DNA of 50,357 bases from Candidatus Marispirochaeta associata (GTDB lineage Bacteria > Spirochaetota > Spirochaetia > JC444 > Marispirochaetaceae): NCBI GenBank assembly GCA_001749745.1, contig JWTM01000043.1:1-50357 (forward strand). Direction: 5' to 3'. Positions 16,228 through 46,523 of this stretch are shown here, piece by piece (the first letter of the stretch is position 1; each line of letters opens with the position of its first letter). Position numbers and translations under genes: made by a program. A model generated the notes under the pieces. It was not told where the DNA came from, made no database searches, and saw only the letters and a list, made by a program, of their open reading frames with translations.

Positions 16228-16329
16228 AGATATTCCTTTCTGTTTCTGAGTTTCGGCCAAATATCTCTTCTGTTCAAGTGGGAATTCATGAGATTAAGAG
16301 ATTCCCTTCTAAAGCCGAGAATTGTAGTA

Positions 16330-25954: not shown

Positions 25955-26956
25955 ATGAATATCTACGACATCGCCAAGGAGGCCGGCGTCTCCATCGCCA
26001 CCGTCTCCCGGGTTCTCAACGGGAGCAGCAAGGTCAAGGAGTCGACCCGCACCCGGATAGAGGAGATCCTGCAACGAAACCGCTACGCCCCCAGCGTCTT
26101 CGCCCGGGGGATGGTCTCGGGCAGCATGCGCTCGGTGGGGGTACTGACCATCGATGTGCGGGATATCTACTACGGCACCGTTACCTACGCCGTCGAACAC
26201 GCCTTCTTAGAAGAGGGCTACAACACCGTGCTCTGCAATACCGGCGGACTGCCGGAGCGGCAACTGCATTACCTCTCCCTCTTGACTGCCAAACAGGTAG
26301 ACGGGATTATCCTGGTCGGATCCGCCTTCAAAGACCAGGGCCTCGAGTCGGCCCTGCGGGAGGTCTCAACGGACATTCCGGTGGTAATGCTCAACCGCAA
26401 ACTCGAAGGCGAGAACATCCGCTCGGTGATCTGCGACGAGAAACAGGGCACCGCCGACTGCGTGGCTCACTTAGCGGCGGCGGGACACAGCGGCATCCGC
26501 TATGTGCAGGATACGAATACCTACAGCGCGATCCGCAAACTGGAAGGCTTCAAGGCCGGCATGGCCGCCGCCGGTTTAGAACTGGAACCGCACTCGATTA
26601 TCGAAACGGTCAAGGGCTTCGCCGGCGGCGTGAGCGCTGCGGAATCCCTGGGCGGGGCCGATTTTACCGCCCTCATGACCGGGGACGATCTGACCGCGGC
26701 GGGGGTCTGCAAAGGCCTGCGCCGGATCGGGCGGGTTCCCGGCGGCGATACGGCGGTAACCGGCTTCAACGACTCGATTATCGCCCTCAGTACCGACCCC
26801 GAACTGACCTCAGTAGACAACCGAGCCGAAGAGATGGGAAAAACCGCCGCCGCCCTCCTCTGCCGCCTCCTCTCCGGCGGAGACGTGCCGGAAGTCACTA
26901 TCCTCGAACCGAAATTGACGATCCGGGCCAGCACCCGACTCGTACAAGATAGATAA
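25955..26956 (+). CDS. LacI-family transcriptional regulator
   Basis: A 333-residue repressor. Residues 1-55 are the LacI helix-turn-helix (IYDIAKEAGVSIATVSRVLN) with the hinge helix region; the remainder is a periplasmic-binding-like sugar sensor domain. It probably controls the uxaB-uxaA genes directly downstream (12-bp gap) and its own promoter through the palindrome at 25905-25918. The effector is likely a hexuronate or altronate-related compound. Confidence 0.93.
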   Translation: MNIYDIAKEAGVSIATVSRVLNGSSKVKESTRTRIEEILQRNRYAPSVFARGMVSGSMRSVGVLTIDVRDIYYGTVTYAVEHAFLEEGYNTVLCNTGGLPERQLHYLSLLTAKQVDGIILVGSAFKDQGLESALREVSTDIPVVMLNRKLEGENIRSVICDEKQGTADCVAHLAAAGHSGIRYVQDTNTYSAIRKLEGFKAGMAAAGLELEPHSIIETVKGFAGGVSAAESLGGADFTALMTGDDLTAAGVCKGLRRIGRVPGGDTAVTGFNDSIIALSTDPELTSVDNRAEEMGKTAAALLCRLLSGGDVPEVTILEPKLTIRASTRLVQDR

Positions 26957-26968
26957 GGAGCAGCAATC

Positions 26969-28501
26969 ATGCATGCATTGAACAAGGACTTCGCCTCTAC
27001 TCATCAGTTTCCCGAAGAGCTCGTCCCGCCGCGGATAAACAACCATCCTATAAAAATCCTGCAGTTCGGCGAGGGGAACTTCCTGCGGGGCTTCGTCGAC
27101 TGGATGGTCGATCGTATGAATCGCAAGAACCTCTTTCAGGGTCGGGTAAAGGTAATCCAGCCCATTGATCGAGGTCTGGTAGACCTTATCAACGATCAGG
27201 ACGGCCTCTACACCCTCTATCTGCGGGGGCTGGAGCAGGGGGAGACTCGGGAAGAGAAGGAGGTCATCGCCTCCCTCGCAGGCGGTCTCAATCCCTACGC
27301 CGATTTCGAGGCCTTCCTGGCGGAGGCGGATAATCCGGATCTGCGCTTTGTCGTCTCCAACACCACCGAGGCCGGCATCGCCTACAGCGCCGACGACGGA
27401 GCTGAAGACGCGCCTCCCGCCTCCTTTCCGGCCAAGGTGCTGCGTCTGCTGCGCCGGCGCTACGAGAGCTTCTCCGGGGATGCGGGAAAGGGACTGGTCT
27501 TCCTTCCCTGCGAACTGATCGACCGCAACGGCGACAACCTGAAGCGCATCGTGCTGCGCCTGGCCGGGGAGTGGGGTTTCGACGCCGCCTTCCGCCGCTG
27601 GATCGAGGAGGAGAATATCTTCTGCAATACCCTGGTCGACCGGATCGTTACCGGCTACCCCTTCGACAAGATCGACGAGTACATGGCCGAGCTCGGCTAT
27701 GCCGACAAGCTGGTCGACACCGGGGAGCTCTTCCACCTCTGGGTCATCGAAGGGCCTAAGGAGCTGCGGGAGGAGCTGCCGCTGACCGAAGCCGGCCTGA
27801 ATGTGGTCTGGACCGACGACATGACCCCCTACCGAACCCGCAAGGTTCGGATCCTGAACGGCGCCCACACCATGACCGTTATGGCCGCCTACCTGGCGGG
27901 CCTGGATACCGTGGATGAGTGTCTGAAGGATGCGACCATGGCCGCATACCTCCGCATCGGAATATTCGAAGAGATCATCCCCACCATGGATATGGAGAGG
28001 GAGGAGCTGGTCTCCTTCGCCGAAGCGGTGCTGGAGCGTTTTGCCAACCCCTTCATCAAGCACTATCTCTTGAGCATCTCCCTCAACTCGGTCTCCAAGT
28101 TCAAGGCCCGGGTACTCCCCACCTTGAAGGATTCCATCGAACGCACCGGTGAGGTTCCGGCGGTCCTGAGCTTCGCCCTGGCCTCCTTGATCAGCTTCTA
28201 CCGGGGGACCGGCATCCACAACGGAGCCTTGATCGGCACCCGCAACGGCGAAACCTACAAGATCATCGACAATGCCGATGTTCTCGAATTCTTCCATGCA
28301 ACCTGGGGCGCGTACGACGGCAGCGACGAAGCGGCCGAGAAACTTGTCCGCGCGGTACTCGGCAACGAACAGCTCTGGGGGGAGGATTTGAACAGTCAGA
28401 AGGGACTCACCGAAGCCGTCCTTACCCATCTTGCGGCGATCCGCAGCCGGGGCATGGCGGCGGCCGTCGGCAGTCTCTGCGGCCAGGAGGTCGCCTCCTA
28501 A
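26969..28501 (+). CDS. uxaB: Tagaturonate reductase (altronate oxidoreductase)
   Basis: A 510-residue enzyme of the mannitol dehydrogenase family that reduces tagaturonate to altronate with NADH. The nucleotide-binding segment is ILQFGEGNFLRGF (30-42). Further blocks include VVSNTTEAGI, LPCELIDRNG and VRILNGAHTM. AAGGAG precedes the ATG. The stop codon overlaps the uxaA start codon (TAATG). The length matches UxaB rather than the shorter mannitol enzymes. Confidence 0.92.
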   Translation: MHALNKDFASTHQFPEELVPPRINNHPIKILQFGEGNFLRGFVDWMVDRMNRKNLFQGRVKVIQPIDRGLVDLINDQDGLYTLYLRGLEQGETREEKEVIASLAGGLNPYADFEAFLAEADNPDLRFVVSNTTEAGIAYSADDGAEDAPPASFPAKVLRLLRRRYESFSGDAGKGLVFLPCELIDRNGDNLKRIVLRLAGEWGFDAAFRRWIEEENIFCNTLVDRIVTGYPFDKIDEYMAELGYADKLVDTGELFHLWVIEGPKELREELPLTEAGLNVVWTDDMTPYRTRKVRILNGAHTMTVMAAYLAGLDTVDECLKDATMAAYLRIGIFEEIIPTMDMEREELVSFAEAVLERFANPFIKHYLLSISLNSVSKFKARVLPTLKDSIERTGEVPAVLSFALASLISFYRGTGIHNGALIGTRNGETYKIIDNADVLEFFHATWGAYDGSDEAAEKLVRAVLGNEQLWGEDLNSQKGLTEAVLTHLAAIRSRGMAAAVGSLCGQEVAS

Positions 28502-29991
28502 TGCGGGCGATCCGGATTCATCCCCGGGACGGCGTGGCCGTGGCTATCGTCGATCTGCAGCCCCAGGAGTCGATTTCCGTAGGGGGCGAGACGCTTATCC
28601 TCAGGGAGGCCGTCCCTCGGGGGCACAAGTTCGCCCTCAAGGATTTCAGCCCCGGGGACGAGGTGCTCAAGTACGGCTACTCCATCGGCCGGGCGCTAGA
28701 GCCGATCAGCGCCGGTGAGCGAGTTCATGTTCACAACCTGAAAACGGGCTTGAGCGGGCTCTCCGAGTATGAATACCGGCCCAATGCGCGGGCGATCGAA
28801 TCGGAGCCGACCCGCAGCTTCCAGGGCTACCGCCGCAAAGGGGGCCGGGCGGGGGTGCGCAACGAGGTATGGATTCTTCCTATCTCGGGCTGCGTCAACC
28901 GGACCGCCGAAACCCTGGCCCGGAAGGCCGTCGATCTCCCCTCCGGCCTTGACGGGGTACACGCCTTTCCCCACCCCTACGGCTGCTCCCAGTTGGGAGA
29001 CGATCACGAGTACACCCGGAGCATCCTGGCCGCCCTGGCGGACCACCCCAACGCCGGGGCGGTGCTCTTGATCGGATTAGGTTGCGAGAACAACCAGATG
29101 TCGGCCTTCAAGGAGCTCCTGCGCGAGAAGGGAAGCTACGACGAGGAGCGGATGCGCTTCCTGGTAACCCAGGATGTGGAAGACGAGCTCGTCGCCGGCG
29201 AAGAGCTCCTGAAGGAGTGCATCGCCTACGCCGCAGGCTTTACCCGGGTGGAGATTCCCGCCGACGAACTGATCGTCGGCCTCAAGTGCGGCGGTTCCGA
29301 CGGCTTCTCGGGACTGACCGCCAATCCCCTCTTGGGGGCCTTCTCGGACAAGTTGGTGGCCCAGGGGGGCAGCACGATCTTGACCGAGGTGCCCGAGATG
29401 TTCGGCGCCGAGACGATTCTGATGAACCGCGCCCGGGACGAAGTTGTCTTTGGGAAGATTGTGGATCTGATAAACGATTTCAAGCGCTATTTTATCAAAC
29501 ACGACCAAACGGTCTACGAGAATCCCAGTCCCGGCAACAAGGACGGGGGCATCTCGACCCTGGAGGACAAGTCCCTTGGTTGCACTCAGAAGGGGGGCGA
29601 CGCGCCGGTGGCCGACGTGATCGCCTACGGGGAGCAGGTCTCCACCCCGGGTCTCAATCTGCTGCAGGGGCCGGGAAACGACATCGTCTCCCTGACCGCC
29701 TTAGCCGCCGCCGGGGCCCAGATCGTGCTCTTTACCACCGGCCGGGGGAATCCCCTGGGCGGTCCCGTGCCCACTATAAAGGTGGCCAGTAACGGCGAGC
29801 TCGCCGCCCGGAAGCCCCACTGGATCGACTTCAACGCCGGGGACCTGGTGGAGAAGGAGGCCTGCAGCCTCGACTCGTTAGCCGAAGAGCTGATGGAAAG
29901 GGTGCTGTCCTGCGCCGCGGGTACGCCGGCCCGGAACGAGGAGCACGGCTATCGGGAGATCGCTATCTTCAAGGACGGGGTTATCCTCTAA
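28501..29991 (+). CDS. uxaA: Altronate dehydratase
   Basis: A 496-residue dehydratase that converts altronate to 2-keto-3-deoxygluconate. The N terminus (1-95) is the SAF domain, and the rest is the UxaA core with CVNRTAETLARK, CSQLGDDHEYT, LGCENNQMS and LKCGGSDGFSG, whose cysteines bind the metal centre. The coupled start with uxaB and the upstream LacI gene make an altronate branch operon. Uronate isomerase (uxaC), kdgK and kdgA are not in the window. Confidence 0.94.
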   Translation: MRAIRIHPRDGVAVAIVDLQPQESISVGGETLILREAVPRGHKFALKDFSPGDEVLKYGYSIGRALEPISAGERVHVHNLKTGLSGLSEYEYRPNARAIESEPTRSFQGYRRKGGRAGVRNEVWILPISGCVNRTAETLARKAVDLPSGLDGVHAFPHPYGCSQLGDDHEYTRSILAALADHPNAGAVLLIGLGCENNQMSAFKELLREKGSYDEERMRFLVTQDVEDELVAGEELLKECIAYAAGFTRVEIPADELIVGLKCGGSDGFSGLTANPLLGAFSDKLVAQGGSTILTEVPEMFGAETILMNRARDEVVFGKIVDLINDFKRYFIKHDQTVYENPSPGNKDGGISTLEDKSLGCTQKGGDAPVADVIAYGEQVSTPGLNLLQGPGNDIVSLTALAAAGAQIVLFTTGRGNPLGGPVPTIKVASNGELAARKPHWIDFNAGDLVEKEACSLDSLAEELMERVLSCAAGTPARNEEHGYREIAIFKDGVIL

Positions 29992-34103: not shown

Positions 34104-34215
34104 CCCGATAAGCCTATGCAATTAGAATTAAATTCTCAAGGGTCAGGTAAAAAAAGATTGCTTTTCGATGCTCCCCTCGCTACCCTTTAGCCAGAAACTT
34201 AATTCGGAGGCAAGT

Positions 34216-34587
34216 ATGAAAAAACTGATTCTAGTGTCGCTCCTACTGGTAGCGGCCGGGTTCCTCTTTGCCGAGGGCATCGATGTGGGTGATTTCCCCA
34301 CCGGGAAATGGCTCGACGAGAATTACGATGCAGTCTGGGAGTTCTCGGTAGACAACATCAGGATCCTCGATCCGTCGGGCATGGTCTATTACGACTTTTC
34401 CGAGGCGACGGTGGAGGATTTTGAGGTCAACGCCGGGACCGGCGGACTGGTGCTCTCGTTCTCCTGCGTTGAAACCGGGAAGAGCTACAAGTTCACCAAA
34501 CCGGTCTCCATGGGAAGCGAGATCGTTCTCGAGATCGATCCTCCCTGGGATGAGGACTACAAAGTCGAGATGCCCTTCCAGCGTTAG
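34216..34587 (+). CDS. Small secreted protein, unknown function
   Basis: A 123-residue protein with a signal peptide (MKKLILVSLLLVAAGFLFAEG). The mature domain of about 100 residues is beta-rich (FPTGKWLDENYDAVWEFSVD) and acidic, and I recognise no family; the opening resembles spirochaete lipocalin-like or DUF domains. GGAGG lies 5 nt before the ATG, although the frame opens earlier. It diverges from the CDF gene and converges on the GntR pair. Confidence 0.65.
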   Translation: MKKLILVSLLLVAAGFLFAEGIDVGDFPTGKWLDENYDAVWEFSVDNIRILDPSGMVYYDFSEATVEDFEVNAGTGGLVLSFSCVETGKSYKFTKPVSMGSEIVLEIDPPWDEDYKVEMPFQR

Positions 34588-34623: not shown

Positions 34624-35271
34624 CTATCGCCACCCCATATCGACATGATCCGGAATAATCTTCATGGTATTGATAAGGTGGTTCGTCATCGCCAACTGAG
34701 CCGCTTCGCCGTCGCCCTTCCGTATCGCATCGATAATCTGCTGATGCTCGTCCAGGGTCTCCTCGGGCGAACGCAATAATCCCTTCTGGTAACTGCGCAT
34801 CATATAGGCGTAGGTATCATTTATCTGGCTCATGAAGGTGTTACCGCAGCGCGAGAGGAGTCCGGTATGGAACTCCTTATCTGCCAAATAGTAGGCATGG
34901 GCCTCTTTATCGCTCAGCGGGTGGGTAAAGCCGTCGAAGAGCTCCAATACATGGTTTAGCTCTCCCCTGTGTTCGGCGGCGCAGATCCGGGCGGCGATGC
35001 CTTCCAGACCGGCCCGGACCGCAAAGATCTCCCGCAGATCGTCGGCTGTATATTCGCGCACGAAGAACCCCTGGCCGCCTCGCAGCTCCAGGTAGCCCTC
35101 GCCGGCCAAGCGGTTTAGCGCATCATTTACCGGGGTCAGGCTGACACCGATCATGGCGGCTAAATCGCCCTTCTGAAGCTTCTCCCCGGGACCGAGTTCC
35201 CCTTCGAGAACCAGACTCTTCAGCCGGTCATAGACCGCATCGCTTAAGACCGTGCGCCGGATTTTACTCAT
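34624..35271 (-). CDS. GntR/FCD-family regulator with degenerate recognition helix
   Basis: A 215-residue FadR-subfamily protein: a winged helix (residues 8-75) and an FCD ligand-binding domain (85-210) with His residues expected for metal binding (DKEFHTG and TNHLINT). The recognition helix reads GVSLTPVNDAL, whereas typical family members have SRTPVREAL; both arginines that contact DNA are missing. It overlaps the other GntR gene by 8 bp and is last in the tct-transketolase operon. It may act only as a partner of its neighbour. Confidence 0.85.
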   Translation of the reverse strand: MSKIRRTVLSDAVYDRLKSLVLEGELGPGEKLQKGDLAAMIGVSLTPVNDALNRLAGEGYLELRGGQGFFVREYTADDLREIFAVRAGLEGIAARICAAEHRGELNHVLELFDGFTHPLSDKEAHAYYLADKEFHTGLLSRCGNTFMSQINDTYAYMMRSYQKGLLRSPEETLDEHQQIIDAIRKGDGEAAQLAMTNHLINTMKIIPDHVDMGWR

Positions 35272-35911
35272 TCCTCTCCTCCGCCTCTTCCAACAGCTCC
35301 CGGGATGTCAGCAGATGCGCATGCATATGCCGTTCGGCCTGCTCCGCTTCGCCGGCGGCGATAGCCTCGAAGACCGCAACATGATCCTTATAGGAGATAA
35401 CCGGATCCCGCATGAAGCGGGTTATATTACTCAAGACGACCAGGCTGTAGGAGCTGATCATCCTGTAGAGCAGGTCGTTGCCGCTCAGGCGATGAATGGT
35501 CATATGGTAACGGTAATCAAGCTCGTAAATCGCCTTCTTGTCGTCGGCTTCGGCTACCTCGTGAAAGGATTCGAGGAGGGTCTTGAGCTCAGCCACGCCC
35601 TCGGGATCGGTCCGGAGCGCGGCATTATATGCACCCAGGGGTTCGAGACGAATACGGATATCGTAGATATCCTTCAATTGATCCAGACTGAGTTTCCGAA
35701 CGAAGGCTCCGCGCCGGGGAATAATCTCCACCAAAAGCTCTTTTTCGAGCTTTGTCAAAGCGGAGAGGATCGGCGTGCGCGAGACCCCGAGCCGCTCGGC
35801 GAGATCTTCCTGTACCAGTTTTTGTCCTGCCTCAAAGTCGCCCCGCAGGATCATCTCTTTGATGACGCTGTATACCTTTTCGGGAAGATCTTTATATTCA
35901 AGCTCAGTCAT
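35264..35911 (-). CDS. GntR/FCD-family regulator
   Basis: A 215-residue FadR-subfamily repressor with a winged helix (6-75; recognition helix LGVSRTPILSAL keeps the first Arg) and an FCD domain (85-210). It is 63 bp downstream of a TIM-barrel gene on the same strand and likely belongs to the operon, though this gap could hold its own promoter. The 22-bp palindrome upstream of tctC has the TTGTATACAA core typical of FCD-type operators and is the likely target. The ligand may be the transported acid or a catabolic intermediate. Confidence 0.9.
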   Translation of the reverse strand: MTELEYKDLPEKVYSVIKEMILRGDFEAGQKLVQEDLAERLGVSRTPILSALTKLEKELLVEIIPRRGAFVRKLSLDQLKDIYDIRIRLEPLGAYNAALRTDPEGVAELKTLLESFHEVAEADDKKAIYELDYRYHMTIHRLSGNDLLYRMISSYSLVVLSNITRFMRDPVISYKDHVAVFEAIAAGEAEQAERHMHAHLLTSRELLEEAEERNE

Positions 35912-35933
35912 TTCCCCGTACTATAATGGGGAA
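35912..35933 (-). promoter_or_regulatory. Inverted repeat abutting the upstream GntR start codon
   Basis: TTCCCC and GGGGAA with a 10-nt loop stand directly against the ATG at 35911. In RNA the hairpin would occlude the start region; in DNA it could bind a repressor. The ribosome-binding purines are part of the stem. Confidence 0.45.
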
Positions 35934-35973
35934 GAAAGCCCAGGTCAATTCCGGACCTCTTCCCCTCCTTATT

Positions 35974-36948
35974 CTATTTTAGAGAGAGGATCTCCTCTTC
36001 GATAAACCGCCAGGTCTTGAGATAGTCCCCGCCGGTGATAAGTCCTTCGAACTGCTTCAGATCGACTCGGTCGAGCAGGGCCCAGATCTTGTTGGTTACC
36101 CGGGCGTTCATCTCGAAAACACCCTGAATATCCCAACGTGTGGGCGAGGTATCCGAGGTAAGATAGTCGCTGTAGTTGAACTTCTTCAGGTAATAGAGGA
36201 ACTCCACATAGCCCAGCAGGTTCTGAGTTCCGACCATGTAGTCCCAGTCCCAGCGACCGTCGTTATCATTGATGTGGATATAGTAGGGTTTCCCGCTCTC
36301 CGCCAGCAGGGATACCGCCTCGGCGGGATTCTCATTTCCATAGGTGGAGTGACCGAAGTCGAGGGTAATACCGAGGTTCTCGGCCTTGATGTCGTTCAGT
36401 AGACAGAGGGCCTTGGAGCTGGTGTCGACGAAACAACGTCCCCGGGTCTCGGAGGGCTTGTACTCGATGAAGAGGGGCATCGCCGTATTGTGCGAGGCCG
36501 CCTCGCCGAAGGTCTCCACCAGATAGCGCCACATCTGTCCGTAGTCGCACTGAAAGTTGAACTCGTAGCCGTCGCCCAAAGGACAGCAGGTTACCTTATC
36601 CGCACCCACCTCGGCCGCATAGTCCTTGGCTTCCTTGATCAGTTTAACCGCTTTGGCCCGCACGCCGGCGTCGGTGGAGGTGAGCCCGCCGTTCCGGAAC
36701 TCCGGTTCGGCCTTCACATTGACGTTGATTGCGGCCACCGAGAGATTGTACTTCTGCAGAAGCTCTTTGAGCTCCGCCGCCGAAGGGACCTCGTAGGGAT
36801 AGACGACCTCGACGCCGTCGGTATCGGGCATGGATGCGATCATGGCGAACTTCTCGTCCAGACTGATCTTCTTATTGTACTCGTGAAAACGGTCCTTGGT
36901 TTGACTCAGAAACCCCGTAATGATTGCGCTTTTAACCTTGTTGGCCAT
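35974..36948 (-). CDS. TIM-barrel sugar isomerase/epimerase
   Basis: A 324-residue AP_endonuc_2/xylose-isomerase-like TIM barrel. Metal-binding residues are visible in PLFIEYKPSE, ITLDFGHSTYG and IHINDNDGRWDWD. Such proteins isomerise or epimerise sugars and keto-sugars, and the WDWD segment is typical of a rhamnose/sugar-isomerase-like branch. AAGGAG precedes the ATG. It lies 15 bp after the transketolase C subunit gene. The substrate is unknown; the operon suggests it works alongside transketolase and the other TIM barrel. Confidence 0.8.
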   Translation of the reverse strand: MANKVKSAIITGFLSQTKDRFHEYNKKISLDEKFAMIASMPDTDGVEVVYPYEVPSAAELKELLQKYNLSVAAINVNVKAEPEFRNGGLTSTDAGVRAKAVKLIKEAKDYAAEVGADKVTCCPLGDGYEFNFQCDYGQMWRYLVETFGEAASHNTAMPLFIEYKPSETRGRCFVDTSSKALCLLNDIKAENLGITLDFGHSTYGNENPAEAVSLLAESGKPYYIHINDNDGRWDWDYMVGTQNLLGYVEFLYYLKKFNYSDYLTSDTSPTRWDIQGVFEMNARVTNKIWALLDRVDLKQFEGLITGGDYLKTWRFIEEEILSLK

Positions 36949-36963
36949 AGGTACTCCTTTCTA

Positions 36964-37926
36964 TTAAGCCTTTTTCGCGACCAGCTTTTCCGCCGCGGGT
37001 ACAATTTGATTTACCGAAATGCCGTATTTATCGATAACCTTGAGATAGTTTCCCGATTCGCCGAAGGTGTCGGGAATGCCGAGGTTATCGAAGGGTACGG
37101 GCATGTTTTTCAGGAAATGAATCCCCATATCGTATCCCAGACCGTTCCGGGCCTGGTGATTCTCGGCGACCAAAAGGGCGCCGGTCTTCTTTACAGAAGC
37201 GGTAATTCCCTCAACGTCCCAGGGTTTGATCGAGTAGGCGTCGATAACCTCCGCCTCGATCCCCGCCGCGGCGAGCCGATCGGCCGCTTCCAGGGCCTGG
37301 AAGACGATATCCCCGTAGGAGACGATGGTAACGTCCTTTCCTGCCCGCAAGACCTTGCTGCCCCCTAAGGGGAAGCTCTCGTTCGGCTTGTAGAGCTCGA
37401 AGAGGGGGTCCCGCATCAGCCGAGTAAAGAAGGGGCCGGGGGTTTCCAGAGCCAAGTCCAACATCCCCGCCGCCGAGACCGGATCCGAGGGACAGACGAC
37501 CTTCATATTGGGGAGGGTCGACATAAAGGCGATATCCTCGGTGGCCTGGTGGGTCGCCCCGTCGATGGCCGCGGTCAGTCCGCCGTGGGAGGAGAGGAAC
37601 TTCACGTTCAGCTTCGGGTAACAGATGAAGGAACGAATCGCCTCCACCGCCCGCATGGTGATGAAGACGCCGTAACCGCAAACGATTACGCTGCGCCCTT
37701 CCATCGCGAAGCCCGCCGCCGAGGCGACCGTGTTGGATTCAGCGATTCCCATGTTGAAGTAGCGGTCGGGATAGGCGTCGCCGAACATGTATGAGTAGGT
37801 CGAGTAGCCGATATCCGACTCGAAGACCACGAAATCTTTATCTTTCTCGCCGTAGGCAACCATCCGGTCCGAGAAAGCTCGCCGGGTAGGTACCTTGGCC
37901 TTTTGCAGTTCTGCCGTCAGGGTCAT
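36964..37926 (-). CDS. Transketolase, C-terminal subunit
   Basis: A 320-residue subunit holding the pyrimidine-binding and C-terminal domains of a split transketolase. FNMGIAESNTVASAAGFAME carries the Glu that activates thiamine diphosphate, and ATHQATEDIAFM matches the family. The start overlaps the end of the N-terminal subunit gene by 4 bp (ATGA). It needs the neighbouring N subunit for activity and should transfer a two-carbon unit between sugars. Confidence 0.93.
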   Translation of the reverse strand: MTLTAELQKAKVPTRRAFSDRMVAYGEKDKDFVVFESDIGYSTYSYMFGDAYPDRYFNMGIAESNTVASAAGFAMEGRSVIVCGYGVFITMRAVEAIRSFICYPKLNVKFLSSHGGLTAAIDGATHQATEDIAFMSTLPNMKVVCPSDPVSAAGMLDLALETPGPFFTRLMRDPLFELYKPNESFPLGGSKVLRAGKDVTIVSYGDIVFQALEAADRLAAAGIEAEVIDAYSIKPWDVEGITASVKKTGALLVAENHQARNGLGYDMGIHFLKNMPVPFDNLGIPDTFGESGNYLKVIDKYGISVNQIVPAAEKLVAKKA

Positions 37927-38780
37927 TTAGCGCTCCCTCCCATTACTTCTTTCACAGCCTGAGCATACTGCTCGTCGTTCGGCGGCTTACCGTGCCAGGC
38001 CCGGTCGAGCTCCATGAAGCTGACGCCTTTGCCCTTCTTGGTATCCGCAATGATGCAGAAGGGCTTGCCTTTAAAATCCCGGGCCTCTTCGAGGGCCGCT
38101 ACGACCTGAGCCATGTCATGACCGTCGATCCGTTTCGTTTCCCAGCCGAAAGCCTGGAAGCGGGCTTCCACGTTCTCTACCGGCATAACATCCCTGGTGA
38201 AGCCGTCGTTCTGAACCTGGTTGTTGTCGACGATGGCCACCAGATTATCGAGCTTGAACTTGCTCGCCGCTTCGGCCGCCTCGTAAACCTGTCCTTCCTG
38301 AATCTCCCCGTCCCCGAGCATGGTATAGACGGTATACTCCTGCTTCAGGAATTTCCCTTCCAGTGCCATCCCGACGGCCATACTGATACCCTGCCCCAGG
38401 GAGCCGGTGGTCGCCTCGATTCCGGGAGCCTTGTCCTTGACCGGGTGTCCCTGCAGGCGGGATTCAAACTGCCTGAGGGTCTTGAGCTCCTCCACCGGAA
38501 AGTAGCCTCTGAGCGCCAGCGCTCCGTAGAGCACCGGACAGGCGTGTCCCTTGGAGAGGACGAAGCGGTCCCGTTCCTTCCAGCGCGGTTCTTCAGGCCG
38601 AATCCGCATAATGTCAAAATAGAGAGCGGTTACCATATCCGCCGCTGAGAGCGATCCTCCGGGATGACCCGACTGCACATGATGTATCATGGTCAGAATC
38701 TGGTATCGAAGCTCTCGGGCCTTCTCTTTTAGGCTTTCAACTCGTGCCGCGTCTACCGCGGTAGCTGTCGCCGTAGCCAT
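37923..38780 (-). CDS. Transketolase, N-terminal subunit
   Basis: A 285-residue subunit with the thiamine-diphosphate-binding domain. HHVQSGHPGGSLSAADMV, the GDGEIQEGQVYEAAEAA signature and DNNQ are standard. It is paired with the C subunit gene and the two together equal one full transketolase. Split forms of this kind serve specialised catabolic pathways, such as apulose 4-phosphate or sulfosugar cleavage, as well as the pentose phosphate route. Three bases separate it from the TIM-barrel gene upstream. Confidence 0.93.
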   Translation of the reverse strand: MATATATAVDAARVESLKEKARELRYQILTMIHHVQSGHPGGSLSAADMVTALYFDIMRIRPEEPRWKERDRFVLSKGHACPVLYGALALRGYFPVEELKTLRQFESRLQGHPVKDKAPGIEATTGSLGQGISMAVGMALEGKFLKQEYTVYTMLGDGEIQEGQVYEAAEAASKFKLDNLVAIVDNNQVQNDGFTRDVMPVENVEARFQAFGWETKRIDGHDMAQVVAALEEARDFKGKPFCIIADTKKGKGVSFMELDRAWHGKPPNDEQYAQAVKEVMGGSAK

Positions 38781-38783
38781 TCT

Positions 38784-39635
38784 TTACACTCCTTCCGTAT
38801 TCACACTCCGCATCTCCCTCGTCAGGGCGATACAGCTATTCAACGCGTTCCGGTAGACCTTTTCAGTTTCGTCCGGTTCGCAAATGATTTCCAAATCCCA
38901 CGCACCCCGATACGAACTCGCATCGAGGGCGGAAAAAACCTCGGACCACGCTATCGTCCCTTCCCCGGGAGGATGAGAACCGTTGGTGATGCCGTCGTTA
39001 TCGCAGATATGAGTAGCGAAGATCCGGTGGTTCCGGATCAGCCTCGGGAGATCGAATCCCGCCGCATGGAAATGGCCTGTGTCCAGGTTGAGTCCCGCAT
39101 CGGCGAACTCATCCGTACCCAGGAGCCATTCCAACGCTTCAGGACTGCCGCCCATGCTTCCGGGCAGTACCTCGATCGCTATCTGCAGATCCCTCACCGT
39201 GAAGGGCGTCGCTATACGCTTCCATTGTCGAAGAAACGCCTTCCGGGAGGAATCCTCCTCCGGCTCGCCCGCAAAGGGCGGCAAGGGAATCGAGACGGTC
39301 TTCACCGCGGGAAATTCTTCCGTAATCGCGGCGATCCGCTCCGCCGACTCAGCCCAGCTTGCATCCGCACAGACCTCGACCGATGCGAGGCCATGCAGCA
39401 GGCAGTGGGCGACGAAAACCTCCGCCGAGAGGGAAGAGCCGCGCAATGTCCTCCGCAGAGAGGAGGCGCTTACCGCTTCCCATAGATCAATCTTACGTGT
39501 CTCGAAGATCTCCAGCTGGAGGCTCTCGAAACCGGCCGCTTCGATGCGGGGAATCTCCCGCTCGATCTCGGCCGGCCCGAAGCCGCCGCCGTAGCGGGAG
39601 ATCATCCAGGCCGGCGAAACGCCCCAGCGAATCAT
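38784..39635 (-). CDS. TIM-barrel sugar isomerase/epimerase
   Basis: A 283-residue xylose-isomerase-like TIM barrel. Metal-site blocks are QIAIEVLPGS, LNLDTGHFH, ATHICDNDG and DLEIICE, with Glu, Asp, His and Glu as expected. It is only distantly related to the other TIM-barrel protein of the operon. ATG 39635 is 4 bp after the tctA stop codon; the frame extends upstream into tctA, but MIRWGVSPAWM is the natural start of the fold. The substrate is unknown, perhaps the first intermediate after import. Confidence 0.85.
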   Translation of the reverse strand: MIRWGVSPAWMISRYGGGFGPAEIEREIPRIEAAGFESLQLEIFETRKIDLWEAVSASSLRRTLRGSSLSAEVFVAHCLLHGLASVEVCADASWAESAERIAAITEEFPAVKTVSIPLPPFAGEPEEDSSRKAFLRQWKRIATPFTVRDLQIAIEVLPGSMGGSPEALEWLLGTDEFADAGLNLDTGHFHAAGFDLPRLIRNHRIFATHICDNDGITNGSHPPGEGTIAWSEVFSALDASSYRGAWDLEIICEPDETEKVYRNALNSCIALTREMRSVNTEGV

Positions 39636-39639
39636 CGAC

Positions 39640-41193
39640 CTAGTCCTGACTCTTTCCGGCCTTCTTCCGCCGGCTAAAGAGGGTCGCCACAACCCGGTTC
39701 TGAAGAGCCTTTACCGCCGGTATCTGGCTGATCATCATGTAGGCGATGACCAGGAAGAGGATTAACGCCACCGGACGGGTAAAGACCGGCAGGAAGCTTC
39801 CCTTGGATACCATCAGCGCCCGGCGCAGGTTGGTATCGCACATCTCGCCCAGGATCACACCGATTACCAGGGGGGCGATCGGGTACTTCATCTCGGTCAG
39901 GAAGTAGGCCATGAAGCCTACCGGCAGCATCAGGAACAGGTTGAAGACGTTGGTTCCCAAGGCGTACGAACCGATCACGCAGAGGACGCCGATTACCGGC
40001 ATAAAGATGCTGATCGGTATCTTCAAGACCTTGATCACCTGCTTGGCCAGAAAGATTCCGCAGATCCACATGGTGAACGAGGCTAAAAGCAGGATCGCGG
40101 TAATCTGCAGGTAGAATCCGGGATGGTCGATGTTGAGCATCGGACCGGGATTGAAGCCGTGCAGGAGCAGCGCGCCTAAGAGCATCGCCGCCGGAGGGCT
40201 TCCCGGAACACCGAGGCTCAAGAGCGGAATCATCGCCCCGCCGATACAGGCGTTGTTGGCCGTCTCGGTGGCTACTACAGCCTCCTCGACGCCGGTTCCG
40301 AAGAGTTCCGGATGCTTGCTCGAGTTTTTCGCCGTACCGTAGGAGACCCAGCCGGCGATATCCTCGCCGATACCGGGGACCGCCCCGATGCCGACGCCTA
40401 TCAGGGCCGAACGGACAATATTCTTGAAGTTCTTACCGATAGTACGCCATTCGGGCACGATGCGGTTTACCTCGGCCATCTCGCCGTACTTCATGTTATC
40501 CCTGAGGGTCTGCATGATCTGGGGGATACCGAAAGCGCCGATCAGCACCGGCACCAGGTCGAGGCCCGAATCGAGTTCGGAGTACCCAAAGGTAAAGCGC
40601 GGGTAGTTCTGCAGGCCGTCACGGCCGATGGTCGCCATCCAGAGGCCGATGAAGCCGGCGATCCAGCCCTTGATCACCAGATCGTGACTGGTCAAGGTGC
40701 CGGAGATCACGATCCCGAAGAGGGCCAGGAGGAAGAACTCGAAGGAGGTAAACTCCAGGGCCAGGGCCGAGATAATCGGTGAGAAGGCGACCACGAAGAT
40801 CATGCCGATGAAGGTACCGATGGCCGACGCGGTTGTCGTTAAACCAAGGGCTCGGCCGGCGTAGCCCTTTTTAGCCAGGGGGTAGCCGTCCATGGCGGTA
40901 GCCGCGGCGGCCGCGGTGCCGGGAATATTGACCAGGATGGCGGTATAGGATCCGCCGTAGACCCCGCCCACATAGATGCCCATCAGGGCCACCATGGCGG
41001 TCGCCGGGGACATCCCGTAGGTGAGGGTCGTCAACAGGGCTACTCCCAGGGTGGCCGTCAGGCCGGGGGTAGCGCCGAAGATAATTCCCATTATGACCGA
41101 TCCGAAGAGGAGTAGTATCGCTACCGGATCTACGATTAAGTGTCCTATCTCTACCGCAAACTGCTGCAGAGCTGCAAAGGCTAAATCAAGCAT
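39640..41193 (-). CDS. tctA: Tripartite tricarboxylate transporter, large permease TctA
   Basis: A 517-residue membrane protein with about 11-12 helices and the TctA signature GATPGLTATLGVALL near residue 40. It is the main translocation subunit of a secondary uptake system driven by ion gradients, working with TctB and the TctC binding protein. Known substrates are citrate, other carboxylates and, in some relatives, sulfonates or sugar acids. The gene is 9 bp after tctB. Confidence 0.93.
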   Translation of the reverse strand: MLDLAFAALQQFAVEIGHLIVDPVAILLLFGSVIMGIIFGATPGLTATLGVALLTTLTYGMSPATAMVALMGIYVGGVYGGSYTAILVNIPGTAAAAATAMDGYPLAKKGYAGRALGLTTTASAIGTFIGMIFVVAFSPIISALALEFTSFEFFLLALFGIVISGTLTSHDLVIKGWIAGFIGLWMATIGRDGLQNYPRFTFGYSELDSGLDLVPVLIGAFGIPQIMQTLRDNMKYGEMAEVNRIVPEWRTIGKNFKNIVRSALIGVGIGAVPGIGEDIAGWVSYGTAKNSSKHPELFGTGVEEAVVATETANNACIGGAMIPLLSLGVPGSPPAAMLLGALLLHGFNPGPMLNIDHPGFYLQITAILLLASFTMWICGIFLAKQVIKVLKIPISIFMPVIGVLCVIGSYALGTNVFNLFLMLPVGFMAYFLTEMKYPIAPLVIGVILGEMCDTNLRRALMVSKGSFLPVFTRPVALILFLVIAYMMISQIPAVKALQNRVVATLFSRRKKAGKSQD

Positions 41194-41202
41194 TACGTTC
41201 CC

Positions 41203-41952
41203 CTAATATTTGATCGCGTAGTAGATCATGTTCATCGGGCTTAAGATCAGCCCCTCATTGGGCAGCGGCACCAGCAGGAAGTAGCGGAATACCGGACAGA
41301 GAAAGAGGGGCGTGACGATAGATACGATCAAGACCGTACGTACCTTCTTGAGCTGCAGTCCTTCCGCCTTGGCCAGGCGCCGGGCGTAGATCACCATACC
41401 GACGAATGCTAAAAGGAAGATCACGTCGCTGACGGCTATATAACCTTGGTTGACTACATTCAGGAGTCCCGTGGCCGCCATCAGGATCAGTACGGCGCAT
41501 TCAATCGCAAAGTAGAGGGTCAACTTCCGCATCAGCGCGTCGTTCTCCATGTAGAAGACGGTGCTGATGAAGAAGAGGAAGGTCATGATCGCGATAAAAA
41601 AATCCACAAAGGGGATGAACAGATATATGAACGCCAACAGCGCCAGGGCGATAACCAGTACGCGCTGATTTTTTTCACTAATTTTTTGAGAAAAGAATTC
41701 TCCCGCGGAACCCGAGAGCGCCTTGAGGGCCCCCGCTTTTATGGCCACGCCCATCAGGGCGACGGAGAGCAGGATAATCGCCGCGCCGACGATCAGCGGA
41801 AAGAGGGCGGGAGCTACATACCAGTGGGTCTGCACGCCGCCGTAGGCCGCTTCCATGGGCATACCGAAGGCCCGCATTACGATAAAGAGGCCGAAGGCAA
41901 GCAGAATAACGCTGGTGATAAAATCAGATTGTCTCTGATTGGACTGTTCCAT
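41203..41952 (-). CDS. tctB: Tripartite tricarboxylate transporter, small permease TctB
   Basis: A 249-residue membrane protein with N-terminal SDFITSVILLAFGLFIV and several further helices. It is longer than many TctB proteins, which usually have four helices in about 150-200 residues; here an extra C-terminal helix pair is present. It forms the membrane complex with TctA. A strong hairpin separates it from tctC upstream. Confidence 0.85.
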   Translation of the reverse strand: MEQSNQRQSDFITSVILLAFGLFIVMRAFGMPMEAAYGGVQTHWYVAPALFPLIVGAAIILLSVALMGVAIKAGALKALSGSAGEFFSQKISEKNQRVLVIALALLAFIYLFIPFVDFFIAIMTFLFFISTVFYMENDALMRKLTLYFAIECAVLILMAATGLLNVVNQGYIAVSDVIFLLAFVGMVIYARRLAKAEGLQLKKVRTVLIVSIVTPLFLCPVFRYFLLVPLPNEGLILSPMNMIYYAIKY

Positions 41953-41977
41953 TTCGAAAAAACCTCATCTTTTAAGC

Positions 41978-42002
41978 GGGCATCGGCTTAATGCCGATGC
42001 CC
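41978..42002 (-). promoter_or_regulatory. Intercistronic hairpin between tctC and tctB
   Basis: GGGCATCGGC and GCCGATGCCC form a perfect 10-bp stem with a 5-nt loop, 42 bp after the tctC stop. No T-run follows. Such hairpins commonly protect the mRNA of highly expressed binding proteins and reduce expression of the genes behind. Confidence 0.8.
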
Positions 42003-42043
42003 TTGAATCTTCAGCTTTCTCCCTAACAAAAAGGGGGATTCCT

Positions 42044-43066
42044 CTACGGTTTCGGGATGTTCAGGTCTGCAGGATTTACGTCGGCTGCGCCGAGCTCCCA
42101 CAGGGTCCATGCAAAGTTGGATTCGAGCTGAGCGAATACCTCATTAGCCTCGGGACCGCGCTTGCCGGAGAGAACGTAGAACTTCTCTTGGCCGAACTTT
42201 TTAACTGCATCGGAAGCCATGGCCTCGTCGAATGCCGCGTAGAGCACCTCTTTCTTCTCCTGAGCGACGTCGGCGGGTACCGCAAAGCCGATGGACTGTG
42301 CCAGGGGCAGGTACTCGGAGAGATCGGGGTAGGAGTCGAAGGCGGAGGGGATCTCCATTCCGTCGAGGGTGAAGCTGTCGGGAGTCAGCATGCCCAAGGG
42401 GCGCAGCTTTCCGCCGCGGATCAGCTCGGCCTGTTCGGCGACGGAGGTAACGATAACCGAGATCTCACCGGTCATGGCTGCATTCTGCGAAGGAGCGGAA
42501 CCGTCGTAGGGGATGAAGTTGAACTTCGCACCGGAACCGTTCTCGAGAGCAAGCAGGTTCAGGTGGTGGATCGATCCGGAACCGGAAGCGCCGGCGCGGA
42601 TGGTGCCCTTGTCGGCCTTAGCGGCTTCGAGCAGATCCTCGATGGTCTCGTAGGGGGAGTCGGGATTGACCGAAACAACGTCCGGGGAACCGCCGATAAT
42701 GAAGGTATCCCATACATTGAAGCGGTTGCTCCAGGCGCCCTTAACACCGGCGGTTACATTCGACTCGGAAAGACCGGTCAGGGTGTAGCCGTCGTGGGCG
42801 GCGCTGTAGCCGTAGGTCATACCGACGGAACCGGCGGCACCACCGGTCTTGTTGATGACGTTGACATTGACGCCCAGAGCCTTGGACATCTCTGCCATGA
42901 CGACGCGGTTACAGACGTCGGTACCGCCGCCGGCACCCCATACAACTACGGTGGTGATGTCGCGAGCGGGATAATCGATATCCGCACCGGCGGTTTCAGC
43001 TTCGCCGCCGGCGAAGGCCAGACCGCCAACCATCAATACAAGAGCGAGCACGAAAAGTTTCCTCAT
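42044..43066 (-). CDS. tctC: TctC/Bug-family substrate-binding protein
   Basis: A 340-residue periplasmic receptor with a signal peptide of about 20-24 residues (MRKLFVLALVLMVGGLAFAG). The mature part has the two-lobed Bug fold signature (ITTVVVWGAGGGTDVCNRVV and FIPYDGSAPSQNAAMTGEI). It captures the organic anion for the TctAB permease. TAAGGAGG lies 6 nt before the ATG, and a 22-bp palindrome overlaps the promoter, so it is the first gene of the regulated operon. Confidence 0.93.
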   Translation of the reverse strand: MRKLFVLALVLMVGGLAFAGGEAETAGADIDYPARDITTVVVWGAGGGTDVCNRVVMAEMSKALGVNVNVINKTGGAAGSVGMTYGYSAAHDGYTLTGLSESNVTAGVKGAWSNRFNVWDTFIIGGSPDVVSVNPDSPYETIEDLLEAAKADKGTIRAGASGSGSIHHLNLLALENGSGAKFNFIPYDGSAPSQNAAMTGEISVIVTSVAEQAELIRGGKLRPLGMLTPDSFTLDGMEIPSAFDSYPDLSEYLPLAQSIGFAVPADVAQEKKEVLYAAFDEAMASDAVKKFGQEKFYVLSGKRGPEANEVFAQLESNFAWTLWELGAADVNPADLNIPKP

Positions 43067-43091
43067 ACATTTCCTCCTTAGGATTGGTATG

Positions 43092-43136
43092 AAAATATTG
43101 TATACAATATTTTAGCATGCATCTGGGAGCTGTCAA
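43092..43136 (-). promoter_or_regulatory. Promoter and GntR-type operator of the tct-transketolase operon
   Basis: On the minus strand, TTGACA (43136-43131), a 16-bp spacer and TAAAAT (43114-43109) form the promoter. A perfect 22-bp palindrome with core ATTGTATACAAT occupies 43092-43113, covering the -10 box and start site. It has the TTGTATACAA pattern bound by FCD-type GntR proteins, two of which are encoded at the end of the operon. Confidence 0.85.
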
Positions 43137-44623: not shown

Positions 44624-46450
44624 TCACTCGGTATCGCGGGGACGCTCCCCCATCAAGAGCAGATCCCGCAGCTGTTCCGGCCCGGTCGCTCCGCGCCAGG
44701 CCTCTCGAAAACCGTCGGTCAGCACCAACCGCGCCAGGGTCGAGAGGACCTGCAGATGCAGGGTACGCCGGTCTTCGCTGCCGCAGAGAAAGAAGATCGC
44801 CTCCACCTTCTCCCGCTCGGCACTGAATCTGACCCCTGAACGACTCCTGACCAGGGCCAGCTGAAAGCGCTCCCGACCGGGAACGACCACATGGGGAACC
44901 GCCACGAACTCATCCAGTACGGTGGAGGAGGATTCTTCCCTCTCAATCAACGCGGAATTCAGCGCAGCGGTCTCCATTCCCAGGGAGGGAGCGAGAGTCT
45001 CGGCGACTCTTTGAAAGAGAAGATCATACTCATCCACCCGGTCGAGGTCGAGAACCAGCGCCTCCCGCAGCAATCGGTCGAAATCGTCATCCACGATTCC
45101 GTCCCGCCGGCGGACAATCTCCCGCAGCTCCTCCTCCAGGCCATGTCCGGTAAAGCGCTTATTGATAATCCGCTCGATCCAGTGCAGCAGGGCGTATTCC
45201 CGCTTGGCCGCCTTTCGTCCGTAGAAGAGATACAACGCCAGACTGACCAACACGAATCCGGCGCTCGCCTCAATCGAGACCCAGCCGAGATCGACGATCA
45301 GCCCCAGGAAGATCAGGATAGAGATAATCTGCAGAACCGGATAGAACGGCGCCCGGAAGCTGGGTCGATAATTGAGCACCCTCCCGCTGCGCAGCACCAG
45401 AACCGAAAGGTTGGTCAGGATGTAGGTCGTAAGAATGACCGCCGAGGCGGACTTGACCAGCAAGTCCAGGGGCAGGAAGACCGCCCCGGCCATCAATGCG
45501 CCGGTCAAGAGCAGCGCGGGGACCGGAACCGTCCTCCTGGTACGGCCCAGAATGCCCGGTAAGAGGCGGTCTGAGCTCAAAGCGAGGGGATAGCGGGCGG
45601 CGGAGAGGATGCCCGCATTGGCGGTGGTTACAAACGCCAGCACCGCGGCGACACTCAGGGCCGCAAAGCCGTAGCGGCCGGCAAGCAGGCGCCCCGTATC
45701 CGCCAGGGGGGTCAAGGAGCTCTCGAGCTCCGTGGCCGGCAAAACACCCACCGTAACATAGAGCACCGCCCCGTAGACCAGGGTGATGGTGCCGACGGAG
45801 ATAAGAATCCCCATAGGAATATTTCGGCGAGGGTTTTCTACCTCCTCGGCAATGCTGGCCACATTAATCAATCCTCCGAAGGAGACGAACACGAAGGCGA
45901 TGGTCGAGACGAAACCCTGGGCGCCGCGACTGAAGAATGGGTTATAGGCTTCGGGATCGACCTGCTTCCATCCGAGCACGGCATAGGCCGCCAGCAGACC
46001 CAAAAGAAGCGCCACCAGACCTACCTCGAGCTTGCTGGCAAAATCGACGCCGACTAGATTGATCAGAACGAAGAGCAGCGTGAATCCCAAGGCCAGCAAC
46101 TCCGGCGAAATCCCCGACACCTGCCCGGCAATCTCGCTTAAACCGACCACCGCGAAGGCGCTCTTCAGGGTTAAGGCGAACCAGGTAAGCATCCCGGCCA
46201 CGGTACCTACCAAGGAGCCGAGACTGCGGTGGATAATGAAGTAGTCGCCCCCCGATTTTGGCATGGCGGTAACCAGCTCCACCAGACTCAGGATGCCCGC
46301 CATAGCCACAAAGCCGGCCACTACATAGGCGGCGATTACCGAGGGGCCGGAACGTTCGAATGCGAGTCCGGGGAGGATGAATATGCCAGAACTGATCATC
46401 ACTCCCGATGCAATGGCGAAGACATGGATAAAGCCGAGGCTCTTCTGCAT
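44624..46450 (-). CDS. APC-family amino acid permease fused to an EIIA-like domain
   Basis: A 608-residue protein. Residues about 1-420 are the 12-helix APC core with IASGVMISSGIFILPG (substrate-binding first helix). Residues about 440-608 form a cytoplasmic domain like fructose-type PTS EIIA; FVAVPHVVVPG places the His that EIIA proteins phosphorylate. This suggests that sugar phosphotransferase state regulates amino acid uptake. ATG 46450 is chosen because AGGAGGTG precedes it; TTG at 46468 would also be in frame. Confidence 0.85.
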   Translation of the reverse strand: MQKSLGFIHVFAIASGVMISSGIFILPGLAFERSGPSVIAAYVVAGFVAMAGILSLVELVTAMPKSGGDYFIIHRSLGSLVGTVAGMLTWFALTLKSAFAVVGLSEIAGQVSGISPELLALGFTLLFVLINLVGVDFASKLEVGLVALLLGLLAAYAVLGWKQVDPEAYNPFFSRGAQGFVSTIAFVFVSFGGLINVASIAEEVENPRRNIPMGILISVGTITLVYGAVLYVTVGVLPATELESSLTPLADTGRLLAGRYGFAALSVAAVLAFVTTANAGILSAARYPLALSSDRLLPGILGRTRRTVPVPALLLTGALMAGAVFLPLDLLVKSASAVILTTYILTNLSVLVLRSGRVLNYRPSFRAPFYPVLQIISILIFLGLIVDLGWVSIEASAGFVLVSLALYLFYGRKAAKREYALLHWIERIINKRFTGHGLEEELREIVRRRDGIVDDDFDRLLREALVLDLDRVDEYDLLFQRVAETLAPSLGMETAALNSALIEREESSSTVLDEFVAVPHVVVPGRERFQLALVRSRSGVRFSAEREKVEAIFFLCGSEDRRTLHLQVLSTLARLVLTDGFREAWRGATGPEQLRDLLLMGERPRDTE

Positions 46451-46523
46451 TCCCACCTCCTCTCTCAATTCAGCGGCGTGGATAAGATACAGAATATTCG
46501 AGCGGAGAAGAATGAAAAAATGA

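What the first reader, a model, noticed from the sequence alone, without database searches (positions are those of the whole stretch)
34624..43136. Kinase-less operon: tripartite transporter, two TIM-barrel isomerases and split transketolase
Eleven kilobases of one strand encode tctCBA, TIM-barrel isomerase, transketolase N and C, a second TIM-barrel isomerase and two GntR regulators under one palindrome-controlled promoter. Known dedicated split transketolases act on apulose 4-phosphate (which needs a kinase) or, in the sulfo-transketolase pathway, on 6-deoxy-6-sulfofructose, where two isomerisation steps alternate with transketolase and no kinase is needed. Here the import system handles anions, two isomerases are present and no kinase is encoded. 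An acidic or sulfonated sugar cleaved by transketolase without phosphorylation is a reasonable, untested hypothesis. A previously undescribed variant is possible.
Basis: partly seen in the sequence, partly recalled or inferred. Interest (0 to 1): 0.8.

Follow-up and report, generated by a model that had tools for sequence, protein, structure and literature searches.

The report
Kinase-less transketolase operon for acidic sugars
This stretch of a spirochaete genome encodes a transporter of the organic-acid type, two isomerase-like proteins, a two-part transketolase and two regulators, and together they are predicted to break down an unidentified acidic sugar without first adding a phosphate to it.

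Summary
The operon is real: tctC-tctB-tctA-TIM1-transketolase N-transketolase C-TIM2-GntR-GntR, minus strand, 34624-43066, with a promoter-like site whose -10 overlaps a 22-bp palindrome. TIM2 is the hub. Among 87 related loci it lies near acid-type importers (Tct 51, TRAP 6, MFS 11, none seen 19) and alternative modules: split transketolase (47), DUF1537 kinase (28; 20 with a PanB-like gene), DhaKL/RpiB (7). A glyoxylate/hydroxypyruvate-reductase-like gene is in 29 of 47 transketolase loci and 0 of 40 others. TIM2 has the xylose-isomerase metal/lysine set; its nearest solved relative is 3ktc, whose group also supplies an apiose operon. Lys79 (90 of 90) stands where sisters have an aromatic (10 of 12) or Arg (2). 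The transketolase lies outside the SqwGH-like and AptAB clades and lacks the sulfo-transketolase RAFDR motif; the same genome bin has separate apiose-type and SqwGH-like loci. Best reading: a carboxylate counterpart of those pathways. Import, isomerisation, C2 transfer to glyceraldehyde-3-phosphate and reduction of the released oxo acid are inferred; the substrate is unknown.

The parts
43109..43136 (-). sigma-70-like promoter TTGACA-16-TAAAAT, 11 of 12 matches
   Evidence: consensus match only; number of such sites in the region is not above shuffles
43092..43113 (.). 22-bp perfect palindrome AAAATATTGTATACAATATTTT overlapping the -10; probable GntR/FCD operator
   Evidence: exact core found 28 times in 87 loci, 27 of them near the start of a labelled gene
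42044..43066 (-). tctC, periplasmic binding protein of a tripartite tricarboxylate transporter
41203..41952 (-). tctB, small membrane subunit
39640..41193 (-). tctA, large membrane subunit
38784..39635 (-). TIM1, AP_endonuc_2 TIM barrel, 3-epimerase-like by fold; start placed at the internal ATG by alignment
37923..38780 (-). transketolase N subunit (thiamine diphosphate domain)
36964..37926 (-). transketolase C subunit, keeps R-S-F-H-R
35974..36948 (-). TIM2, xylose-isomerase-type isomerase with Lys79 at the position aligned with an active-site Phe
35264..35911 (-). GntR/FCD regulator 1
34624..35271 (-). GntR/FCD regulator 2
35920..35948 (-). weaker promoter-like site before the GntR genes, 10 of 12 matches
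   Evidence: not above shuffles by count

Best explanation
The operon likely runs a catabolic route in which an acidic aldose is imported by TctABC, would be isomerised to a ketose acid by TIM2, and would then be cleaved directly by the split transketolase, its carboxylate standing in for the phosphate that a kinase would otherwise add. Inferred steps: TIM2 does a xylose-isomerase-type hydride shift; the transketolase moves the two-carbon unit HOCH2-CO- to glyceraldehyde-3-phosphate, giving xylulose-5-phosphate and a short oxo acid, glyoxylate or hydroxypyruvate; in sister operons a linked 2-hydroxyacid dehydrogenase then reduces that acid, while here an unlinked enzyme would have to. TIM1 probably epimerises or isomerises a related stereoisomer or the transketolase product. 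The two GntR/FCD proteins probably repress through the palindrome. For the carbon skeleton I favour, weakly, a branched apiose-like acid (product 3-oxo-isoapionate, released acid hydroxypyruvate) over a linear uronate, because TIM2 is nearest to the group that holds an apiose-operon isomerase and because the alternative modules (DUF1537 kinase with PanB; DhaKL with RpiB) fit a hydroxymethyl-branched five-carbon keto acid. Shown: gene content, conserved residues, phylogeny, gene linkage and the shared operator-like motif. Not shown: any activity, substrate or repression.
Against: No substrate or activity data. The window operon lacks the reductase, and the genome's best match to the L048 reductase is 37% identical. 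Kinases occur in homologous loci (28 DUF1537, 7 Dha), 8 and 1 of them with transketolase. An FGGY kinase lies near the operon in L098, L103 and L110; the L098 one is nearest to the xylulokinase model, 242 bits under a 380 cut-off. In 10 transketolase rows the last Arg of the head-group set aligns with Ser, and L034, L093, L094 differ more; the 39 TIM2-linked rows are not one clade. The same bin has another Tct next to a split transketolase of a different branch, with no TIM2 labelled there (L163). Apiuronate is in no paper found. FBA (9 of 87) and transaldolase-like genes (3 of 87) fit a linear skeleton better. The RpiB in the Dha module scores above cut-off for ribose-5-phosphate isomerase B (158 over 135) and below it for D-erythrulose-4-phosphate isomerase (153 under 240). 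L117 has an ABC importer instead of Tct. TIM1 members share 27-35% identity with the window's.
Confidence: 0.48

Rival explanations
1. Linear uronate version: a hexuronate other than the common ones is isomerised to a hexulosonate, and transketolase cuts it twice as in sulfo-transketolase, with TIM1 or TIM2 isomerising the four-carbon intermediate; the end product is glyoxylate, reduced to glycolate.
For: Exact carboxylate analogue of the sulfo-transketolase scheme (PMC12890257 and PMC11659671, passages). The reductase is glyoxylate-reductase-like. Class II aldolase (9 of 87) and transaldolase-like genes (3 of 87) occur near TIM2 and need a linear chain. A transketolase accepts galacturonate and glucuronate.
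Against: UxaC is present in 9 of 12 TIM2 genomes tested, the window's included, and the window itself has tagaturonate-reductase-like and galactarate-dehydratase-family genes, so common hexuronates look already served. PanB paralogues and DhaKL/RpiB are hard to place.
Confidence: 0.27
2. Sulfosugar version: the operon is a sulfo-transketolase variant acting on a sulfonated sugar.
For: Split transketolase, two isomerase-like proteins, acid importer; sulfo-transketolase occurs in Spirochaetes (PMC12890257, passage).
Against: Window transketolase has R-S-F-H-R, not R-A-F-D-R, and the Sqw rows form a separate clade. No RpiB-type SqwI in the operon, no DUF4867 match in the genome, separate RAFDR locus on C101. 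The linked reductase in sisters is of the glyoxylate type.
Confidence: 0.05
3. Apulose pathway with an unlinked kinase: TIM2 is simply an apiose isomerase and the transketolase needs a phosphorylated ketose made by a kinase elsewhere.
For: TIM2 is nearest to the 3ktc group, which holds an apiose-operon isomerase. FGGY kinases exist in the genome.
Against: A separate apiose-type operon (ABC importer, AptA 54%, AptB 51%, kinase 35%) is on C185 of the same bin. The transketolase is not in the Apt clade and keeps His where the three Apt rows have Asn or Ser. Importers are acid-type and Lys79 is invariant.
Confidence: 0.08
4. The transketolase is an ordinary pentose-phosphate enzyme co-regulated to help pentose recycling, and the TIM barrels do an unrelated job on the imported acid.
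For: It keeps the classical head-group residues; its best PDB match is the C. hydrogenoformans split transketolase.
Against: The genome has a full-length transketolase on C422 (455 bits, 664-residue frame). The window's clade is TIM2-linked across several phyla, and other modules take its place beside TIM2.
Confidence: 0.12

Closest known systems
Sulfo-transketolase pathway (SqwGH, SqwI)
   Same: Kinase-less use of a split transketolase on a ketose that carries its own negative group; two isomerase steps possible; reported in anaerobes including spirochaetes
   Different: Different transketolase clade and head-group residues (RSFHR against RAFDR), TIM barrels instead of DUF4867 and RpiB-type isomerases, Tct importer, glyoxylate/hydroxypyruvate-type reductase in sister operons
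D-apiose pathway with ApsI, kinase and apulose-4-phosphate transketolase AptAB
   Same: Isomerase of the 3ktc group followed by a split transketolase
   Different: No kinase in the operon, Tct importer instead of ABC, transketolase outside the Apt clade, Lys79 in the isomerase
Acid-sugar pathways with DUF1537 kinases (OtnI, OtnK, OtnC)
   Same: Acid sugar and a TIM-barrel isomerase; a DUF1537 protein is the alternative module in 28 of 87 loci
   Different: Here transketolase takes the place of the kinase; the DUF1537 protein tested scores far below the curated cut-offs (66 against 450 and 45 against 350 bits). Family roles of OtnI/OtnK are recalled, with passages in PMC12540250
Xylose isomerase
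   Same: Fold and metal/lysine constellation
   Different: Shorter, about 20% identity, Lys79 where the Thermus enzyme has Phe

Membership tests
Sulfo-transketolase (SqwGH) pathway | R-A-F-D-R head-group motif in the transketolase | tested here: not met
   7 of 7 reference rows (6 beside DUF4867, 1 beside RpiB; inferred SqwGH) have it, the window has R-S-F-H-R; motif from PMC11659671 (passage)
Sulfo-transketolase (SqwGH) pathway | transketolase subunits in the Sqw clade | tested here: not met
   both subunits; Sqw 7 rows 100/100
Sulfo-transketolase (SqwGH) pathway | RpiB-type SqwI and SQ isomerase beside it | tested here: not met
   no such gene in the operon; no DUF4867 match in the genome; that the SQ isomerase is DUF4867 is recalled
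Apulose-4-phosphate transketolase pathway | sugar kinase in the cluster | tested here: not met
Apulose-4-phosphate transketolase pathway | subunits in the AptAB clade | tested here: not met
   Apt 3 rows 100/99
Apulose-4-phosphate transketolase pathway | apiose isomerase of the 3ktc group | tested here: inconclusive
   3ktc is the nearest solved relative, but the core's mean identity to the L045 sister is 28%; that 3ktc is ApsI is recalled
Tripartite tricarboxylate transporter | TctA, TctB and TctC together | tested here: met
Xylose-isomerase-type aldose-ketose isomerases | two-metal and lysine residue set | tested here: met
   conserved in 89-90 of 90, but one aligned ligand reads His225 where the Thermus enzyme has Asp; which residues bind metal is recalled
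Xylose-isomerase-type aldose-ketose isomerases | isomerase activity | not testable with these tools
   needs enzyme assay
Transketolases | thiamine diphosphate, pyrimidine and C-terminal domains over two chains | tested here: met
GntR/FCD regulators | GntR and FCD domains | tested here: met
GntR/FCD regulators | binding to the palindrome | not testable with these tools
   motif placement only

The most novel reading that the evidence does not exclude
A third dedicated transketolase pathway: sulfate reducers and spirochaetes take up a branched apiose-type uronic acid, a nutrient not yet described, isomerise it with a Lys79 version of apiose isomerase to 3-oxo-isoapionate, and let transketolase cut it to xylulose-5-phosphate and hydroxypyruvate, with interchangeable kinase/PanB and DhaKL/RpiB modules serving the same intermediate in other hosts.
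Probability: 0.22. Interest if true: 0.82.

Novelty: new variant of a known kind. Interest (0 to 1): 0.62.

Why it matters
If right, the carboxylate of an acid sugar replaces the phosphate normally added by a kinase, so transketolase becomes the entry enzyme for a class of acidic sugars, as it is for sulfosugars. The hub isomerase is common: 1992 proteins matched, and the 120 listed are all at 68% identity or more. Many of the 80 named loci carry Desulfo-type, Spirochaete or Planctomycetota titles; that such organisms are mostly sediment anaerobes is general knowledge, and would point to an abundant organic acid. The invariant Lys79 and the exchange of downstream modules give direct, cheap tests of which acid it is.

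Tried and rejected
Sulfosugar reading: rejected on motif, clade and gene content. Apiose reading with unlinked kinase: weakened because the bin has its own apiose-type operon. Common hexuronates: weakened by UxaC in 9 of 12 genomes and by the uronate genes in the window. Neighbouring large genes as a hint to the acid: of 10 tested in L100, L105, L107 and L061, 5 had a Pfam match at 1e-8 and none a clear sugar-releasing one; L061 has an alginate-export-type protein; the GH4 gene in L127 is of the alpha-galactosidase type. A wider look in Spirochaetota gave 8 of 392 genomes with TIM2 at E 1e-60, the window's genome among those listed; four of the five regions then fetched have the contig lengths of loci already held and were not counted, the fifth (L182) has a 38% TIM2 beside Tct genes and was not counted either. 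TIM1 gave no PDB match by single sequence and weak 3-epimerase-like matches by profile. The L051 DUF1537 protein has no solved relative at 1e-5. Literature: searches returned no paper; in the listings I saw none on this operon, though most of those lists were capped. Carter 2018 (PMC6435334) and Zhang 2016 (PMC4961189) are not held; what I say of the apionate pathways and their enzyme names is recalled, apart from passages in PMC6302742, PMC13001218, PMC10580937 and PMC12540250.

Limits of the counts: the 87 are the window, 9 loci from relatives and 80, less L113, L119 and L121 (duplicates or near-copies). The tool kept 80 of 92 confirmed loci, and the scan favours close relatives of TIM2. Genes were counted within 9 kb of TIM2 on either strand, many contigs are short, and related loci are not independent, so the test values are not probabilities. 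Four rows were dropped before the trees. Alignment A1 held 41 of 85 TIM2 and 10 of 12 sister ORFs then listed, A2 23 of 27 TIM1 ORFs; one search repeated the residue check on 90 and 12. The first choice of ORFs picked wrong-strand frames over TIM2 in about a dozen loci; one search replaced it. Of 12 DUF4867 regions fetched, 6 showed a transketolase pair.


Full report
What is there. Minus strand, 43066 down to 34624: tctC, tctB, tctA, TIM1, transketolase N, transketolase C, TIM2, two GntR/FCD regulators. Spacing is tight: 91, 9, 4, 3, overlap, 15, 62, overlap bp. A TTGACA-16-TAAAAT site (43136-43109) overlaps a 22-bp perfect palindrome (43113-43092); by count alone such sites are no commoner than in shuffles (2 against 4.4). 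The palindrome core TTGTATACAA occurs 28 times in the 87 related loci, 27 times between 150 bp inside and 250 bp before the start of a labelled gene; five simulated sets had 0, 2, 1, 0 and 0 sites (the simulation tests the number of sites, not their placing). In L101 it precedes both the transketolase operon and the oppositely placed tctC; in L030 it precedes tctC and lies at a GntR gene start. That supports one regulon for importer and enzymes. The genome belongs with Spirochaetia: two relatives called 'same class' have contigs whose lengths match named Spirochaetia/Spirochaetales records (G006:C25 with L113, G051:C196 with L119).

TIM2 is the hub. One genome scan confirmed 92 loci and kept 80; titles include many Desulfobacterales, Spirochaete and Planctomycetota assemblies. 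With the window and 9 loci from relatives, minus 3 duplicates, 87 were labelled with profiles built here. Importers within 9 kb: Tct 51, TRAP 6, MFS 11 (nearest TIGR00893, below its cut-off), none seen 19, many on short contigs; L117 has an ABC importer. Modules: transketolase alone 38, transketolase with DUF1537 8, DUF1537 alone 20, DhaK alone 6, transketolase with DhaK 1, none 14. PanB-like 20, all in DUF1537 loci (20 of 28 against 0 of 59). 2-hydroxyacid dehydrogenase 29, all in transketolase loci (29 of 47 against 0 of 40). TIM1 25, 20 of them with transketolase. These are counts of loci, not of independent events. All 7 genomes tested with the PanB-like gene have two PanB-family genes, so it looks like a paralogue; the L051 copy aligns over residues 11-265 with a solved ketopantoate hydroxymethyltransferase (1oy0, 202 bits).

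Transketolase. Trees of both subunits (54 rows each, 4 dropped first): Sqw 7 rows 100/100 and Apt 3 rows 100/99 are each one side of a branch; the window sits in a starred set of 9 TIM2-linked rows (N, 100/93) and 20 (C, 100/100). The 39 TIM2-linked rows are not one clade: L034, L093 and L094 fall elsewhere, the 36-row N group has 93/82 support, below the starred level, and in the C tree the others split into groups of 15 (84/79) and 21 (85/80). Long branches among Apt, L034 and L036 make deep joins unsure. The Sqw rows are inferred: 6 of 12 fetched DUF4867 regions have a transketolase pair, and 1 more row is the bin's own C101 locus. Head-group residues: window R-S-F-H-R; 7 of 7 Sqw rows R-A-F-D-R; the 3 Apt rows N, N and S at the His; 10 rows, most of delta-proteobacterial title, have Ser at the last Arg. 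The bin also holds a full-length transketolase, an apiose-type operon on C185 and the RAFDR locus on C101. Tetranucleotide correlation with the window: C185 0.967, C101 0.952, C271 0.926 and 0.973, C422 0.892-0.969, C529 0.704. The bin is listed at 11% contamination, so membership is likely, not certain.

What the released acid may be. The best solved relatives of the L029 dehydrogenase are glyoxylate reductases (332 bits); hydroxypyruvate- and glycerate-type enzymes follow lower in the list. The L114 member's best NCBIfam match is PRK06487, a 2-hydroxyacid dehydrogenase, 337 bits under a 448 cut-off. This fits an oxo acid left after removal of a two-carbon unit. Glyoxylate would come from a four-carbon 3-oxo acid, hydroxypyruvate from a branched five-carbon one. 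PanB with a DUF1537 kinase, and DhaKL with RpiB, fit the branched acid: the RpiB scores 153 bits on the D-erythrulose-4-phosphate isomerase model (cut-off 240) but 158 on ribose-5-phosphate isomerase B (cut-off 135), so the erythrulose link is open. Class II aldolase (9 of 87) and transaldolase-like genes (3 of 87) fit a linear acid. I put the branched skeleton slightly ahead, with low confidence.

Known or new. The principle, a split transketolase acting on a ketose with a built-in anion and no kinase, is known from sulfo-transketolase. The isomerase type, transketolase clade, importer and reductase differ. Searches of the open-access library showed no description in the listings seen; subscription papers are mostly not covered. 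I call it a new variant of a known kind.

Noticed in passing
window 25955-29991 (+): LacI-type regulator, tagaturonate-reductase-like gene (654 bits over a 359 cut-off) and galactarate-dehydratase-family gene (244 bits under a 731 cut-off), a likely uronate locus about 5 kb from the operon.
   Followed up: partly
window 44624-46468 (-): Amino-acid permease with a C-terminal PTS EIIA-2 domain.
   Followed up: no
window 17812-19590 (-): Protein with a Cation_efflux match followed by a PEMT-type methyltransferase match.
   Followed up: no
window 12766-16260 (-): 1164-residue ORF without any Pfam match at 1e-5.
   Followed up: no
window 34168-34587 (+): 139-residue ORF convergent with the operon, no Pfam or NCBIfam match at 1e-3.
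   Followed up: no
L034 (G000:C271): Second TIM2 operon in the same bin: TIM1, TIM2, TctC, TctB, TctA and AKR on one strand, a cupin and a DUF1537-like gene on the other, with a transketolase pair and BKACE nearby.
   Followed up: partly
L164 (G000:C101): RAFDR-type split transketolase with RpiB-type isomerase, SqwGH-SqwI-like, but no DUF4867 match in the genome.
   Followed up: partly
L163 (G000:C422:376000-390000): Another Tct transporter beside a split transketolase pair of a different branch.
   Followed up: no
L102, L107, L108 and other Planctomycetota loci: Minimal TIM2 clusters with an MFS transporter, a lyxose-isomerase-like cupin and at times a BKACE gene.
   Followed up: no
L048, L050, L055, L058, L080, L085, L089: Gene of the tartrate-dehydrogenase family near TIM2 operons; the L048 copy scores 559 bits over a 470 cut-off.
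   Followed up: no
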